Shown piece after piece: positions 21,744-32,069 of a stretch of DNA of 33,908 nt. Location of the stretch: contig JAICUV010000003.1 of the NCBI GenBank assembly GCA_025935655.1, forward strand, positions 1-33,908, given 5' to 3'. The DNA is from Chloroflexota bacterium. GTDB taxonomy: Bacteria; Chloroflexota; Limnocylindria; Limnocylindrales; CSP1-4. The notes under the pieces were generated by a model that saw nothing but the letters and a program-made list of their open reading frames with translations, had not been told where the DNA came from and did not search any database. The translations under genes were made by a program, and so were the position numbers. Numbering within the stretch: position 1 is the first letter of the stretch; the number at the start of each line of letters is the position of its first letter.

Positions 21744-22622
21744 TCAGGGCGTCGGCGTTGCCTCGACCGCCTTGAGCTTGGACCGCCTCGCGGCCCACGC
21801 GCCGAGCTCGCGCAACCGCTGCTCGGAGACGGAGCCAGGCTCCGCCGCGTACGTCTGGAGCGTGAGCCCGGGATCGGCCGGCAGATCGAGCGCCTCGAAG
21901 GTCAGCGTCAGCTCGCCGACGAGCGGGTGCCGCAGCTGCTTGGTGCCGCTCAGATGGTTCTTGACGTCATGGGCGGCCCAGCGGACCGCGAACTCCTCGC
22001 TCCTCGTGGTGAGCTCGCCGATGAGGTCCGAGAGCGACCGGTCGTAGGGATTGCGCCCGGCCTCGGCGCGGAGCACCGCGACGGTGTCGCTTGCCGCGCG
22101 CTCCCAGTCGATCCAGTAGAGGCGCGAGCGGGGGTCGAGGAACGTGAACCGGGCGGTGTTGGGGCCGCGCGGGTCGCGGTACAGGTCGGAGTACAGGGCG
22201 CGGCCCATGTCGTTCGCATAGACGATGTCGAGGCGTCCATTGCGCACGGCCACCGGGATGCCGACGATGGCATCCACGATCCGGGCGATGCTGGGACGAA
22301 CCTTCTGGGGTGTCGCGGCGCGGCGCGGGGGTTGCTCGGCGTTGGCGGTCCGGCACAGGTCGATGAGGTGGCCGTGCTCGGCCTCGTCCAGCTGGAGCGC
22401 GGCGCTCACGGCCTGGAGCACGCTCTCGGACACGCCGCGCGCGTTGCCGCGCTCCAGGCGGGTGTAGTACTCGACGCTGATGCCGGCGAGCAGTGCGACC
22501 TCCTCGCGGCGGAGGCCCGCGACCCGGCGCTGGCGGCCGAACGCCGGCAGGCCCACCCGCTCCGGCGTCAGCTTGGCGCGGCGGGTGGTGAGGAACTCGC
22601 GGATGTCGCTCTCGGTGCTCAT
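21744..22622 (-). CDS. XRE-family regulator with MmyB-like ligand-binding domain
   Basis: A 292-residue transcription regulator. Residues 5-75 form an XRE helix-turn-helix (FLTTRRAKLTPERVGLP, then LRREEVALLAGISVEYYTRLERG), and residues 110-270 match the MmyB-type PAS-like domain (PVAVRNGRLDIVYANDMGRALY, RFTFLDPRSRLYWIDWERAA), which binds fatty acids or related ligands in studied members. Such regulators usually control a divergent oxidoreductase or dehydrogenase gene; here the divergent neighbour is a short unknown protein. The shared 103-bp region has the palindrome AGGCACTG-N16-CAGTGCCT. The start ATG 22622 has no strong ribosome binding site; TAGGGT lies 9 nt before it, so the message may be leaderless. 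Confidence 0.9.
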   Translation of the reverse strand: MSTESDIREFLTTRRAKLTPERVGLPAFGRQRRVAGLRREEVALLAGISVEYYTRLERGNARGVSESVLQAVSAALQLDEAEHGHLIDLCRTANAEQPPRRAATPQKVRPSIARIVDAIVGIPVAVRNGRLDIVYANDMGRALYSDLYRDPRGPNTARFTFLDPRSRLYWIDWERAASDTVAVLRAEAGRNPYDRSLSDLIGELTTRSEEFAVRWAAHDVKNHLSGTKQLRHPLVGELTLTFEALDLPADPGLTLQTYAAEPGSVSEQRLRELGAWAARRSKLKAVEATPTP

Positions 22623-25297: not shown

Positions 25298-27682
25298 TTA
25301 CTCGACCGTCGTCGTGGTGAGATACCGCCGGCGCTCGACGAGCTCCACGACCGGGCCCCGCAGGGTGAGCTCGGCGGCCAGCGGCAGGTCGGTGGAGGAG
25401 GCACCAACCTGCACGCTGACCCGCCCGGGCTCCACGACGCGGCGGAGGTCCGCCCCGACGTAGCAGAGCTGTTCCGTGGAGAGGCCGAAGCTGACCGTGC
25501 GTCGCTCGCCCGGCTCCAGGTGGACCCGCCGGAAGCCGCGCAGCTCGCGCACCGGGCGCGCAATCGTCGCCTCCTCGTCACGCACGTAGAGCTGGACGAC
25601 CTCGTCGCCGGCGACGGGTCCGGTGTTGGTGACGTCGACCCGGATGGCCACCTCGTCGCCGGTCGTCTCGACCGTCGACCGGTCGAGACGCAGGTCCTCG
25701 AACGCGAACGTCGTGTACGAGCGACCGAACCCGAACGGCCAGAGCGGGCTCACCGGCGAGTCCACGTAGTCGCCCTTGGGGTGCGAGCGCCCGCCCGTGG
25801 GGTGGTGGCGGTACGAGAGCGGGAGCTGGCCCACGCTGCGCGGCATCGACACCGGCAGCTTGCCGCTGGGGTTCACCGCACCGGTGAGCACGCCCGCGAT
25901 CGCGTCGGGGCCCGCGTCGCCGGGAACCCACGCGAGCAGGACGGCGGCGCAGTGCTCGGCGGCCCACGGGATCGCCAGTGGCCGGCCGCTCACGACGTCG
26001 AGCACGACCGGGGTGCCGGTCGCGACCACCGCCTCGAGCAGCTCCTGCTGGCGGCCCATGAACCCCAGCCCCACGCGGTCGCGGAACTCGCCGGTCGTCG
26101 AATCGTCGGTGAGGCCCGAGCGTTCGCCGAGCACGACGACCGCCACGTCGGCGTCGCGAGCGGCGGCAACGGCCGCCGCGAGCTCCTCGTCCGACCCGTC
26201 CGAGATGCCCGTGCCGCGGGCATGGACGACCTGCGCCCCGGTGACGGCGGAGCGCAGGGCGTCGAGGATCGTGCGTCGCCCGGTCAGCTCGTCGCCGGGC
26301 GCGAACACCTCGCCGTCGCCGATGACACCCAGCGCATCGACGCCCGAGCGCATCTCCTGGAGCGTCTCCATGTGGACGAGGTGGCTGTAGTCGCCCAGCA
26401 GGTCGCGCGCGCTGTCCGCGATCGGGCCGACGACCGCGATCCGGCGCAGGCCCGGGTCGAGCGGCAGCACGCCCCGGTTCTCGAGCAGCACGATCGACCG
26501 CTCGGCGAGCGAGCGGGCCGCCTCCGCCTCGGCGACCGCGAGCTCCTCGAACGCGCCGTCCGTCGGCGGGTCGACGTACGGGCGGTCGAACAGGCCCAGG
26601 CGCAGCTTCATCCGGAGCACCCGCTCCACGGCCGCGTCCAGGAGCACCTCGTCCACGCGTCCGTCCGCGAGAGCATCGAGCAGCGGTCGGCCCCAGGCCA
26701 CGGTCCGCGGCAGCTCGGCATCGACGCCGGCGGCGAGCGCGAGCCGGGCGGCCTCGCCCAGGTCCGGGGTCAGGCGATGCGCCGTCGAGATCATCTCCAC
26801 GCCCATGTAGTCCGAGGCGACGATCCCGTCGAAGCCCCACTCGCCGCGCAGGATCGACCCGAGCAGCTCGGTGGACGCGTGGCAGGGCACGCCGTCCACG
26901 TCGCAGTACGCGGGCATCACGCTCCCGATCCGCGCGTGGCGGACCGCCGCCTCGAACGGCACCAGCTGCTCGTCGCGGAGCTCGCGCGGGCCGAGATGCG
27001 CCGGGGCCTGGTTGCGGCCGCCCTCCGCCAGCCCGTGGCCGACCATGTGCTTTGCCGTCGCGAGCACGCCGTCCGCGAGATCCGGGCCCTGGAGCGCCTC
27101 GACGTACGCGCACCCCAGCACCGTCGCCAGGTACGGATCCTCGCCGTACGTCTCCTCGATGCGGCCCCAGCGCGGGTCGCGGGCGATGTCGAAGACCGGC
27201 GCGAGGGCGTGCCGTGCGCCGGTCAGGAGCATCCGCCGGCGGATCGTCGTCGCGACCGCCGTCACGAGGTCCGGGTCGAAGGCTGCCGCCGCACCGATCG
27301 ACTGCTGGAAGGTGGGCGCGGCCCACGCGATCAGGCCGTGGAGGCACTCCTCGTGGATGATCGCGGGGATGCCGAGGCGCGTCCCCTCCACCAGCTGGCG
27401 CTGGATCGCGTTGGCCGTCGCGGCGACCTGGTGCGGGCGGAGGTTCGTGGAACCCGCGAGGCGCGTGATGTGCCCGATGCCGTCCGGCGCCAGCGCGGCG
27501 AGTCGCTCGACGTCGAGCGCGTCGTCGCGGACGACCTCGAACGCCCAGAACGAGCCCAGCTGGGCGACCTTCTCGGCGCGGGTCATGCGCGCGAGGAGGT
27601 CCGCCGCCCGCGTGCCGATGGGCAGCGCGGCGTCCCGATAGGGCAGCGCCGGGTCCCGATAGGGGAGCGCGATCGTGGTCAT
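25298..27682 (-). CDS. GH3 family beta-glycosidase
   Basis: A 794-residue beta-glucosidase/xylosidase-type enzyme. The barrel domain (about 30-340) holds the nucleophile Asp291 in VASDYMGVEM, the substrate-binding KHMVGHG, and IHEECLHG. The second, sandwich domain (400-620) has the GERSGLTDDSTTGEFRDR stretch, whose Glu in GEFRDR is the likely acid/base. The C-terminal FnIII-like domain (680-794) begins near FGFGRSYTTFAFEDL. No signal peptide is present, so it hydrolyses imported oligosaccharides in the cytosol. The start ATG 27682 overlaps the permease stop as ATGA, so it is the last gene of the transporter operon. The first 20 residues carry a short repeat ALPYRDPALPYRDAALP, also seen in the DNA, probably a recent local duplication. 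Confidence 0.93.
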   Translation of the reverse strand: MTTIALPYRDPALPYRDAALPIGTRAADLLARMTRAEKVAQLGSFWAFEVVRDDALDVERLAALAPDGIGHITRLAGSTNLRPHQVAATANAIQRQLVEGTRLGIPAIIHEECLHGLIAWAAPTFQQSIGAAAAFDPDLVTAVATTIRRRMLLTGARHALAPVFDIARDPRWGRIEETYGEDPYLATVLGCAYVEALQGPDLADGVLATAKHMVGHGLAEGGRNQAPAHLGPRELRDEQLVPFEAAVRHARIGSVMPAYCDVDGVPCHASTELLGSILRGEWGFDGIVASDYMGVEMISTAHRLTPDLGEAARLALAAGVDAELPRTVAWGRPLLDALADGRVDEVLLDAAVERVLRMKLRLGLFDRPYVDPPTDGAFEELAVAEAEAARSLAERSIVLLENRGVLPLDPGLRRIAVVGPIADSARDLLGDYSHLVHMETLQEMRSGVDALGVIGDGEVFAPGDELTGRRTILDALRSAVTGAQVVHARGTGISDGSDEELAAAVAAARDADVAVVVLGERSGLTDDSTTGEFRDRVGLGFMGRQQELLEAVVATGTPVVLDVVSGRPLAIPWAAEHCAAVLLAWVPGDAGPDAIAGVLTGAVNPSGKLPVSMPRSVGQLPLSYRHHPTGGRSHPKGDYVDSPVSPLWPFGFGRSYTTFAFEDLRLDRSTVETTGDEVAIRVDVTNTGPVAGDEVVQLYVRDEEATIARPVRELRGFRRVHLEPGERRTVSFGLSTEQLCYVGADLRRVVEPGRVSVQVGASSTDLPLAAELTLRGPVVELVERRRYLTTTTVE

Positions 27683-28521
27683 CCCTTCACCGATCCAGCC
27701 GTCAGGCCGCCGACGAGCTGGCGCTCGGCGAGGAGGTAGAACCCGAGCGCCGGGATCAGGGCGAGCGTCGTGTAGGCGAGGATCCGGGCGGTGTCGGTCG
27801 TGTACTGCGTGCTGAAGTTGGTCACGCCGAGGGGCAGGGTCCAGTTGTTCGCGTCGGACAGCATCACGAGCGGCAGCAGGAACTGGTTCCAGCTCGAGAC
27901 CAGCGCGAGCACCGCGACCGTGACGAGCGCCGGCTTGGCCAGCGGCAGCAGGATGCGGAAGAAGAAGCCCAGCGGCCCGCAGCCGTCGATGGCTGCGGCA
28001 TCCTCCAGCTCCATGGGGATGCTCCGGAAGAACGGCCGCAGGATGATGATCGTGAGCGGCAGCGCGAACGCCGCCTCCGGCAGGGCGAGGCCGAGCGGGT
28101 TGTCCAGGAGGCCCAGGTCGCGGACGAGGATCAGCAGCGGCAGGATCGCGACCGTGACGGGGAACAGCAGCCCGAGCGTGAACACGGTGTACGCGACCTC
28201 GCGACCCGGGAACTCGCGCCGTGCGATGACGAACGCGGCGAGCGCCGCGAACAGGACGACGACGCCGGTCGACAGGCCGGCGACGATCGCGCTGTTGCGC
28301 AGCTGGATCCAGAAGCTCGGCGACGTCAGCGAGTCGGTGTAGTTGGTCCACACCCAGGGATCCGGCAGGCCCACCGGGTTGGCCGCGAGCTGCGGTGCGT
28401 CGCGGAACCCGCCGAGCGCCGCGAACGCCACCGGCGTCACGATCACCCCCGCGACGACGAGCAGCACCGCGTAGCGCAGGACGGACCCTGCGACCCGGCC
28501 CGCGCGGATCGGCTCAGCCAT
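27679..28521 (-). CDS. Carbohydrate ABC transporter permease (MalG type)
   Basis: A 280-residue inner-membrane permease of the CUT1 sugar importer group. It has six hydrophobic segments, and the EAA loop is LEDAAAIDGCGPLGFFFRIL followed by LPLAKPAL. The segment NYTDSL after the first helix and the end LVGGLTAGSVKG are typical of MalG-like proteins. It overlaps the MalF-type gene upstream by 8 bp and the GH3 gene downstream by 4 bp (ATGA), so the three are translated together. With its partner it forms the channel for the oligosaccharide brought by the binding protein at 29520. Confidence 0.92.
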   Translation of the reverse strand: MAEPIRAGRVAGSVLRYAVLLVVAGVIVTPVAFAALGGFRDAPQLAANPVGLPDPWVWTNYTDSLTSPSFWIQLRNSAIVAGLSTGVVVLFAALAAFVIARREFPGREVAYTVFTLGLLFPVTVAILPLLILVRDLGLLDNPLGLALPEAAFALPLTIIILRPFFRSIPMELEDAAAIDGCGPLGFFFRILLPLAKPALVTVAVLALVSSWNQFLLPLVMLSDANNWTLPLGVTNFSTQYTTDTARILAYTTLALIPALGFYLLAERQLVGGLTAGSVKG

Positions 28522-29440
28522 ACGTGGTGGCTCCTTCGGTGTCGCGCCGCAGCACCCACCGCTGGTAGGCGAGGGCGAGGACGAAGCAGATGAGGAACAG
28601 GATCACGGCGACGGCGCTGCCGTAGCCGAACTGGAAGCGCACGAACCCCCGGTCGAACATGTAGACGGCCATCGTGTTCGAGGCATTCACCGGGCCGCCG
28701 CGGGTGGTGACCCACACGAGGTCGAACAGCTGGAGCGACCCGATGATCGAGAGGAACACGGAGACCCGGATCGTCGGGCCGAGCAGCGGGAGCGTCACGT
28801 AGCGCAGCGCCTGGCGGCGCGTCGCGCCGTCGATCGCGGCCGCCTCCTCCAGCTCGCGCGGGATGCCCTGGAGCCCCGCCAGCAGGAGGATCATGTGGAA
28901 GCCGAAGTACTTCCACGTGATGATGAAGAACAGGGCGACGAGGACCGTCGCGGGGTCGGCCAGCCACGGGTGGTAGGCGTCTCCGAGGCCGATCGTCGTG
29001 AGGAAGTGGTCAGCCAGGCCGTTCGGCTGGAGGATCAGGCTCCAGACGATCGCCGTGATGACCTCGGCGATGACGTACGGGGCGAAGAAGATCAGGCGCA
29101 GGACGGCCCGGCCCGGGAACCGCCGGTTGAGCATCAGCGCGATGCCCAGCGCGAACGGGACCTGGAGCACGAGCGAGAGGACCACGATCAGCGCGTTGTG
29201 GCTGACCGCGCCCAGGAACACCGGGTCCGAGAGCGCCCGCTGGAAGTTCGCGAGCCCGACGAACTTGTCCATCGCCTGGAGCCCGTTCCAGTCGTAGAGG
29301 CTGTAGCGGGCGGCCTGGACGATCGGGAACAGCACGAACACCGCGTACAGGACCAGCGCCGGGAGCATGAACAGCCCGGCGAGGCCCCAGGCACGCAGGT
29401 TCCTGCGGGAGCGGGAACGGACTCGGACGGCGGACGCCAC
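28514..29440 (-). CDS. Carbohydrate ABC transporter permease (MalF type)
   Basis: A 308-residue inner-membrane permease with six main hydrophobic segments. The EAA loop is LEEAAAIDGATRRQALRYVT followed by LPLLGPTI, and the first helix is followed by ARYSLYDWNGL, a common CUT1 pattern. The start is uncertain. ATG 29476 is in frame, but its A and T fall at the stem-loop border of a perfect 12-bp hairpin and it has no ribosome binding site; GTG 29440, just after the hairpin, gives a normal Arg-rich N-terminus and is used here. It overlaps the MalG-type gene by 8 bp. It lies 80 bp after the binding-protein gene, with the hairpin in between setting relative expression. Confidence 0.88.
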   Translation of the reverse strand: MASAVRVRSRSRRNLRAWGLAGLFMLPALVLYAVFVLFPIVQAARYSLYDWNGLQAMDKFVGLANFQRALSDPVFLGAVSHNALIVVLSLVLQVPFALGIALMLNRRFPGRAVLRLIFFAPYVIAEVITAIVWSLILQPNGLADHFLTTIGLGDAYHPWLADPATVLVALFFIITWKYFGFHMILLLAGLQGIPRELEEAAAIDGATRRQALRYVTLPLLGPTIRVSVFLSIIGSLQLFDLVWVTTRGGPVNASNTMAVYMFDRGFVRFQFGYGSAVAVILFLICFVLALAYQRWVLRRDTEGATTYG

Positions 29441-29462
29441 GTGACTCAACTCAGCGGGTACG

Positions 29463-29492
29463 GAATGGGCCGGCATGGCAGCCGGCCCATTC
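29463..29492 (-). terminator. Intercistronic hairpin after the sugar-binding protein gene
   Basis: GAATGGGCCGGC, loop TGCCAT, GCCGGCCCATTC on the minus strand: a perfect 12-bp stem with a 6-nt loop, 27 nt after the binding-protein stop. No T-run follows. As the permease genes have no other visible promoter, it is probably a partial terminator or an mRNA-stabilising structure that keeps the binding protein in excess. Confidence 0.7.
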
Positions 29493-30857: not shown

Positions 30858-30877
30858 GTGTCCTCGCTCCTCCTCTT

Positions 30878-30890
30878 CCGAAAGTTGCGA
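30878..30890 (-). promoter_or_regulatory. LacI-type operator copy 1 (imperfect)
   Basis: CCGAAAGTTGCGA on the plus strand departs from a perfect palindrome of the CCGAAAnTTTCGG type at two positions. It lies in the leader of the binding-protein gene, about 22-34 nt after the expected transcription start, with its centre 21 bp (two helical turns) from copy 2. Confidence 0.55.
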
Positions 30891-30898
30891 AATCGTGG

Positions 30899-30911
30899 CC
30901 GCTCGTTTCGG
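30899..30911 (-). promoter_or_regulatory. LacI-type operator copy 2 (imperfect)
   Basis: CCGAAACGAGCGG on the minus strand matches the perfect copy at 30989 at 10 of 13 positions. It begins just after the -10 box of the binding-protein promoter and covers the likely transcription start. Confidence 0.5.
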
Positions 30912-30918
30912 TTCGGCC

Positions 30919-30948
30919 ACTCTAGGATCGGGGTTCTCGGGGCGTCAA
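30919..30948 (-). promoter_or_regulatory. Promoter of the sugar transporter/GH3 operon
   Basis: On the minus strand TTGACG (30948-30943) and TAGAGT (30924-30919) are separated by 18 bp, a good sigma-70-type pair. Transcription should start near 30912, giving a leader of about 55 nt that carries operator copies 1 and 2. Confidence 0.6.
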
Positions 30949-30988
30949 CCCCTGCCTGAATCTTTCGTGAGACTCCTGCACAAACCGG

Positions 30989-31018
30989 CCGAAACTTTCG
31001 GGACGCCGGCGCTATACT
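30989..31018 (+). promoter_or_regulatory. LacI-gene promoter with perfect operator over the -35 region
   Basis: CCGAAACTTTCGG (30989-31001) is a perfect 13-bp palindrome typical of LacI-family operators. TATACT (31013-31018) is the -10 box, and the palindrome covers the place of the -35 box. Only 7 nt separate the -10 box from the ATG at 31026, so the transcript is probably leaderless and negatively self-regulated. Confidence 0.7.
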
Positions 31019-31025
31019 CCGCGCC

Positions 31026-32069
31026 ATGACCGCGACATCCGAGGGCCGATCGGGCCGAAGAGGGCCGACGATCGACCTGATCGCCCGCGAGGCGGGCGTC
31101 TCCGTGCCCACCGTCTCGAAGGTGATCAACGGTCGCGCCGACGTGGCGCCCGCCACCCGCCGTCGGGTGGAGGCGGCGATCCGCGAGCACGGCTACCTGC
31201 GACCGGCCCGGCCGGGTCGTCGGGCGCCGCTGCTGGAGGTGATCTTCCACGAGCTCGAGAGCGAGTGGGCCCTGGAGATCGTGCGCGGCGTCGAACGTGT
31301 CGCGGGGCGCCACCAGCTCGCCGTCGTGCTCACGGAGATGCAGGGCCGCCGACGGCCCGGGCAGGGCTGGATCGAGGGCGCGCTGGCGCGACGGCCGATG
31401 GGCGTCATCGCGGTGTTCTCGGACGTGGACGAGGCGATGCGCGAGCAGCTCCACAGCCGCGGCATCCCGTTCGCCGTCGTGGACCCGGCGGGGGAGCCGC
31501 TCCACGACACCCCGTCCATCGGCGCCACCAACTGGAACGGTGGCCTGGCGGCGACACGGCACCTGCTGGGGCTCGGCCACCGGCGGATCGGGGTCATCGG
31601 CGGCCCGGCGGGCGTCCTGTGCAGCCGCGCGCGCGTCGACGGGTTCCGTGCGGCGATGGACGAGGCCGGCGTGCCCATCGACCCCAGGCTCGTGAGCCAC
31701 GGCCCGTTCCAGGTCGACGAGGGCATCGCCACCGGGCGGCGCCTCCTTGCGCGGCGCGACCGCCCCACGGCGATCATCACCGGCAACGACCTCCAGGCGC
31801 TGGGCGTCTACCAGGCTGCGCGCGAGGCGCGCCTCCACATCCCGGAGGACCTGAGCGTGGTCGGCTTCGACGACCTGCCGATCGCCCGCTGGGTGAGCCC
31901 GCCCCTCACGACGGTCCGCCAGCCGCTGATCGAGATGGCGGAGGCCGCGGCGGAGCTCGTGCTCGGCATCGCCCGCGGCGAGGAGCCCGCCCAGACGCGG
32001 GTCGAGCTGTCGACCGAGCTGATCGTGCGCGAGAGCACCGCGCCGCCCGCGAGCATCGACGCGGCCTGA
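31026..32069 (+). CDS. LacI-family transcription regulator
   Basis: A 347-residue repressor. Residues 14-60 are the LacI helix-turn-helix with hinge (PTIDLIAREAGVSVPTVSKV followed by INGRADVAPATRRRV), and residues 68-335 are a periplasmic-binding-protein-like sensor domain of the PBP1/Peripla_BP_3 type, with HRRIGVIGGP, TAIITGNDLQALGVY, and the end VGFDDLPIARWVSPPLTTVRQ in pieces, all usual for the family. It most likely senses the sugar, or a breakdown product, brought in by the divergent ABC transporter and cleaved by the GH3 enzyme. No ribosome binding site precedes ATG 31026, in keeping with a leaderless message. Operator-like palindromes in the intergenic region support control of both itself and the transporter operon. 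Confidence 0.93.
   Translation: MTATSEGRSGRRGPTIDLIAREAGVSVPTVSKVINGRADVAPATRRRVEAAIREHGYLRPARPGRRAPLLEVIFHELESEWALEIVRGVERVAGRHQLAVVLTEMQGRRRPGQGWIEGALARRPMGVIAVFSDVDEAMREQLHSRGIPFAVVDPAGEPLHDTPSIGATNWNGGLAATRHLLGLGHRRIGVIGGPAGVLCSRARVDGFRAAMDEAGVPIDPRLVSHGPFQVDEGIATGRRLLARRDRPTAIITGNDLQALGVYQAAREARLHIPEDLSVVGFDDLPIARWVSPPLTTVRQPLIEMAEAAAELVLGIARGEEPAQTRVELSTELIVRESTAPPASIDAA

What the first reader, a model, noticed from the sequence alone, without database searches (positions are those of the whole stretch)
30858..31025. Three phased LacI-type operators in one 168-bp divergent promoter
The region has a perfect palindrome CCGAAACTTTCGG over the regulator's -35 region and two imperfect copies around the start and leader of the transporter operon. 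The last two have centres exactly 21 bp apart (same DNA face) and about 90 bp from the perfect copy, a layout suited to cooperative binding or looping. Operators, promoters and regulator can all be placed at base level, which is rare without experiments.
Basis: partly seen in the sequence, partly recalled or inferred. Interest (0 to 1): 0.6.

Follow-up and report, generated by a model that had tools for sequence, protein, structure and literature searches.

The report
Xylan-sugar repressor sites, paired 21 bp
The short repeats are very probably binding sites for a sugar-sensing repressor that controls uptake and breakdown of xylan fragments; this is a Chloroflexota version of a system already known in Streptomyces, with an unusually compact site and a paired spacing conserved in both phyla.

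Summary
Observation confirmed. CGAAACTTTCG (30990-31000) is the only exact core (CGAAASTTTCG) in the 3.46 Mb draft genome. A second site (30879-30889) has a half-site 21 bp away over the transporter start. In 8 of 8 Chloroflexota loci with this divergent gene pair the transporter strand reads TTGAC box, TAnnnT box, CGAAA half-site, then a full site 21-23 bp on. In 71 Streptomyces-group upstream regions, 66 companion sites lie 20-21 bp away (shuffled mean 0.7). The regulator is a BxlR-type LacI protein, 62-65% identical to Streptomyces relatives. The operon (xylo-oligosaccharide-type binding protein, two permeases, GH3 beta-xylosidase-like enzyme), and GH10 xylanase genes behind the same site in a sister clade, point to xylo-oligosaccharides rather than beta-glucosides or oligogalacturonides. 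Looping is not supported: the pair lies 93-157 bp from the regulator-side site without helical phase, and the protein has no tetramerisation tail. The site is not the canonical LacI operator: it is the rare odd palindrome without a central CG, and the protein lacks the hinge helix that normally reads that CG. Ordinary in kind and well supported, with one structurally interesting twist. Binding and effector remain untested.

The parts
30989..31001 (.). O1, perfect operator CCGAAACTTTCGG over the -35 position of the regulator promoter
   Evidence: only exact CGAAASTTTCG core in the genome; counterpart next to the regulator -10 in relatives
30878..30890 (.). O2, operator CCGAAAGTTGCGA in the leader of the transporter operon
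   Evidence: conserved in 8 of 8 divergent loci
30899..30911 (.). O2', weak site: conserved CGAAA half-site (minus strand 30910-30906), other half degenerate, at the transporter transcription start, 21 bp from O2
30956..30968 (.). fourth weak copy CTGAATCTTTCGT, not conserved, doubtful
   Evidence: absent from relatives
30943..30948 (-). -35 box TTGACG of the transporter promoter
   Evidence: equivalent box in 8 loci
30919..30924 (-). -10 box TAGAGT of the transporter promoter, 18-bp spacer
31013..31018 (+). -10 box TATACT of the regulator promoter, 7 nt before the start codon: probably a leaderless mRNA
   Evidence: sequence; 6-8 nt gap in relatives
31026..32069 (+). BxlR-type LacI-family regulator, 347 aa, no hinge helix
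29520..30857 (-). ABC transporter binding lipoprotein, closest solved relatives are xylo-oligosaccharide binders
28514..29476 (-). ABC permease 1
27679..28521 (-). ABC permease 2
25298..27682 (-). GH3 enzyme, beta-xylosidase/arabinosidase-like

Best explanation
The gap is the control region of a BxlR-type xylan-sugar regulon. A dimer of the divergent regulator binds O1 and blocks its own, probably leaderless, promoter. Two dimers, one on O2 and one on the weak O2' two helical turns away, cover the start and leader of the transporter operon and block it. Imported xylo-oligosaccharide (xylobiose-like) releases the repressor, so transporter and beta-xylosidase are made when xylan fragments are present. 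Shown: sites, promoter, their conservation, the link between motif and regulator, gene content. Inferred: binding, repression, cooperativity and effector.
For: Conserved layout in 8 of 8 divergent loci. Exact core sites in 12 of 12 searched genomes with a close relative of the regulator, 1 of 9 same-genus genomes without. Same motif class and 20-21 bp pairing upstream of 62-65% identical Streptomyces-group regulators. CGAAACTTTCG is reported as the BxlR site (PMC4743123) and CGAANNTTTCG upstream of the SirexAA-E bxlR gene (PMC12772271). Same gene order as bxlR / bxlEFG-bxlA. Binding protein nearest to XylA and a XOS-binding protein, GH3 nearest to a beta-xylosidase. Sister-clade sites precede GH10 xylanases.
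Against: No binding, expression or effector data. The transporter proteins are only about 29-35% identical to those beside most Streptomyces relatives, so the imported sugar could differ. GH3 score is under the NCBIfam cut-off for beta-xylosidase/arabinosidase (740 against 1050 bits). The genomes are drafts, 60-92% complete.
Confidence: 0.8

Rival explanations
1. Same operators and regulator, but another effector: cello- or beta-gluco-oligosaccharides, arabino-oligosaccharides or oligogalacturonides.
For: GH3 enzymes are broad; other GH3 models (beta-glucosidase BglX, exo-1,3/1,6-glucosidase) also match.
Against: Best matches of binding protein and enzyme are xylo-specific; the sister-clade target is a xylanase; BxlR itself is reported as xylobiose-responsive.
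Confidence: 0.13
2. A loop between the O2/O2' pair and O1 represses both promoters, as with lac or gal operators.
For: Three sites in one divergent region.
Against: Full-site distances of 93, 99, 111, 111, 131, 132, 141 and 157 bp show no helical phase; the alignment to LacI stops at LacI residue 333 of 360, so no tetramerisation tail.
Confidence: 0.07
3. The palindromes serve another factor, or are a chance or RNA feature.
For: A perfect palindrome of this length is expected in 4.6% of such regions.
Against: Four copies in 168 bp (5e-5), conservation over two phyla, presence tied to this regulator. A one-base loop cannot form an RNA hairpin and no terminator-like site is found.
Confidence: 0.03

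Closest known systems
BxlR and the bxlEFG-bxlA operon of Streptomyces (PMC4743123, PMC12772271)
   Same: Divergent LacI regulator beside binding protein, two permeases and GH3 enzyme; identical 11-bp core CGAAACTTTCG; xylan-related target genes.
   Different: Chloroflexota; transporter and enzyme only about 30-40% identical to those of most Streptomyces loci; here one exact core site in the genome, whereas Streptomyces BxlR sites also sit at other xylanase genes.
Tandem LacI-family sites 21-22 bp apart, e.g. RafR and ScrR (PMC4052901)
   Same: Two sites two helical turns apart, read as cooperative binding of two dimers.
   Different: Here the second site is only a half-site in the Chloroflexota, and the sites are compact odd palindromes.
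EbgR/LacR/GalR-type LacI regulators with odd operators (PMC2329647, PMC4052901)
   Same: Loss of the hinge residues goes with loss of the central CG and an odd palindrome.
   Different: Here the linker is also about four residues shorter and arginine-rich, and the recognition helix reads (V/A)PTVSK; the EbgR-like insertion before helix 3 was not examined.

Membership tests
LacI/GalR transcription factors | LacI HTH plus periplasmic-binding-protein-like core | tested here: met
   PF00356 and PF13377 above cut-off; best fold matches RbsR, CcpA, PurR
LacI/GalR transcription factors | YxPxxxAxxL hinge helix (present in about 60% of the family, PMC3875437) | tested here: not met
   Linker GYLRPARPGRRAPLLEV, no helix in the model; not obligatory for the family
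LacI/GalR transcription factors | Even operator with central CG (most of the family) | tested here: not met
   Core CGAAA-N-TTTCG is odd; odd motifs are 4% of regulators
BxlR (xylobiose-responsive regulator) | Sequence orthology to BxlR | tested here: inconclusive
   62-65% identity to Streptomyces-group relatives, several beside bxl-like operons; the characterised BxlR proteins themselves were not on hand, and a primer-based search for one failed
BxlR (xylobiose-responsive regulator) | Operator CGAAACTTTCG / CGAANNTTTCG | tested here: met
BxlR (xylobiose-responsive regulator) | Divergent binding protein, two permeases and GH3 beta-xylosidase | tested here: met
BxlR (xylobiose-responsive regulator) | Release from DNA by xylobiose | not testable with these tools
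   needs purified protein
Looping repressors (LacI/GalR of E. coli) | Tetramerisation tail or phase-conserved distant operators | tested here: not met

The most novel reading that the evidence does not exclude
A LacI branch spanning Actinomycetota and Chloroflexota lost the hinge helix and with it the middle of the operator (CGAAA-NCGN-TTTCG shrank to CGAAA-N-TTTCG). An arginine-rich linker may lie in the AT-rich minor groove instead, and pairing of two dimers on sites 21 bp apart may replace the affinity the hinge gives. Hinge-bearing paralogues in related genomes show CG-centred palindromes where one is visible (for example TCGAAAGCGCTTTCAT beside L187) and none of those scanned has CGnAAnTTnCG. 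A more distant hinge-less relative (L023) has two CGCAACTTGCG copies, though 24 bp apart.
Probability: 0.35. Interest if true: 0.5.

Novelty: new member of a known kind. Interest (0 to 1): 0.35.

Why it matters
It places a complete xylan-sugar control circuit at base level in an uncultured Chloroflexota lineage and shows that its operator code is the one used by Streptomyces. It also gives a clean comparative set for asking how LacI repressors without a hinge helix bind DNA, and whether the conserved 21-bp pairing makes up for the missing hinge.

Tried and rejected
Looping: rejected on spacing and protein length. RNA hairpin or terminator: one-base loop, no terminator-like site. Wide regulon in this genome: the only exact core site is this one; at <=2 mismatches 25 places against 10 for the reversed pattern, the others not followed up. 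Locating S. lividans bxlR by a published primer gave only a chance match. Searches took some wrong gene starts because one file held five proteins; for site spacing they are superseded, and the linker sequences rest. The hinge-bearing paralogue test was small and most showed no clear palindrome, so the hinge/operator link is suggestive only; Francke et al. 2008 already reported it for EbgR-like proteins. No hinge-bearing control could be modelled.

Full report
What is there. The 168-bp gap between the binding-protein gene (start 30857, minus strand) and the regulator gene (start 31026, plus strand) holds a perfect CCGAAACTTTCGG at 30989-31001, an imperfect copy at 30878-30890 and a weaker one at 30899-30911, the last two centred 21 bp apart. 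Four such matches occur in 5e-5 of shuffles of the gap, and CGNAANTTNCG occurs nowhere else in the window.

Surroundings. The minus-strand operon reads binding lipoprotein, two permeases, GH3 enzyme. The binding protein's best solved matches are XylA (8xba) and a xylo-oligosaccharide-binding protein (3zkk); the enzyme's best is a beta-xylosidase (7zb3). The transporter promoter is TTGACG-18-TAGAGT at 30948-30919, the only promoter-like site found in the region. The regulator's TATACT lies 7 nt before its ATG, so its mRNA is probably leaderless (inference from sequence); its -35 position falls inside the perfect palindrome and has no good hexamer.

Conservation. Relatives of the regulator 61-81% identical were found in other genomes of the family. 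In 8 loci with the same divergent pair (window, L012, L013, L014, L015, L016, L018, L151) the transporter strand shows a TTGAC box, a TAnnnT box, a CGAAA half-site 4-9 nt further on, and a full site 21, 21, 21, 22, 22, 22, 22 or 23 bp after the half-site. A second full site lies beside the regulator's -10. The distance between the two full sites runs from 93 to 157 bp without helical phase. All 12 searched genomes with a close relative of the regulator have an exact core site, against 1 of 9 same-genus genomes without one. The hits away from the regulator mostly appear to fall inside coding sequence and look like background.

Sister clade. In G053, G097, G103 and G070 the regulator gene (61-66% identical) has no site at its own promoter, but one CCGAAACTTTCGA lies on the same contig, just upstream of the likely start of a large gene. 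The two proteins scanned (G053, G097) hold a GH10 xylanase domain with CBM4/9 and CBM9 domains, and one also a polysaccharide deacetylase domain. In all four a conserved GCAACTTCGG word precedes the site and, on the other strand, puts a CCGAA half-site 21 bp from it (read from the sequences printed).

Second phylum. The best named relatives outside the Chloroflexota MAGs are Streptomyces, Kitasatospora and Actinacidiphila, 62-65% identical. Many lie divergently beside a binding protein, two permeases and a GH3 gene; others have only a GH3 match. Over 71 distinct upstream regions with a site, 62 companion sites are at 21 bp and 4 at 20 bp; with flanks shuffled the mean number at 20-22 bp is 0.71 and the maximum 3. 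Many regions come from close relatives, so these are not 71 independent events. Published work names CGAAACTTTCG as the binding site of BxlR, a xylobiose-responsive repressor of S. thermoviolaceus (PMC4743123), and reports CGAANNTTTCG upstream of the bxlR gene of SirexAA-E, which lies in a cluster with bxlEFG and bxlA (PMC12772271).

Protein. The linker between DNA-binding domain and core (GYLRPARPGRRAPLLEV) lacks the YxPxxxAxxL hinge and is about four residues shorter than in hinge-bearing relatives; the Streptomyces relatives share this. The AlphaFold model (mean pLDDT 85) shows no helix there; no hinge-bearing control was modelled. In a family survey odd palindromes belong to 4% of regulators and most even ones have a central CG (PMC4052901), and absence of the hinge residues was tied to absence of the central CG for EbgR-like proteins (PMC2329647). 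CGAAA-N-TTTCG fits that rule. Hinge-bearing paralogues in related genomes show CG-centred palindromes where one is visible, and none of those scanned has CGnAAnTTnCG.

Mechanism. Best reading: BxlR-type repression of both promoters, released by xylo-oligosaccharides. The O2/O2' pair on one DNA face suggests two dimers binding together, as proposed for other 21-22 bp tandem sites (PMC4052901). Looping to O1 is not supported. Binding, effector and cooperativity remain inference.

Verdict. A real and well-conserved feature, but a new member of a known kind; the hinge-less protein with its compact paired operator is the part worth a specialist's attention.

Noticed in passing
L147 2830-7659; L149 from about 3100; equivalent genes in L148 and L150: Large GH10 xylanase genes with CBM4/9 and CBM9 domains sit right behind an exact copy of the operator in a sister clade, convergent with the regulator gene.
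   Followed up: partly
L023, about 60-200 bp upstream of the regulator start: A more distant hinge-less relative (48% identical) has two perfect CGCAACTTGCG copies 24 bp apart: same odd architecture, different bases.
   Followed up: no
window 31013-31026 and relatives L012-L016, L018: The -10 hexamer of the regulator ends 6-8 nt before the start codon in every relative, so the regulator mRNA is probably leaderless throughout.
   Followed up: partly
window 30956-30968: Weak extra operator-like word 33 bp (three turns) from O1; a few Streptomyces regions also have a weak word 33-34 bp from their main site.
   Followed up: no
window 21744-22622: MmyB-like transcriptional regulator gene (PF17765 with HTH).
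   Followed up: no
L012 and L022: The first-look search reports one in-frame stop codon inside the regulator gene of G039 and of G070; whether these are real or draft-assembly errors was not examined.
   Followed up: no
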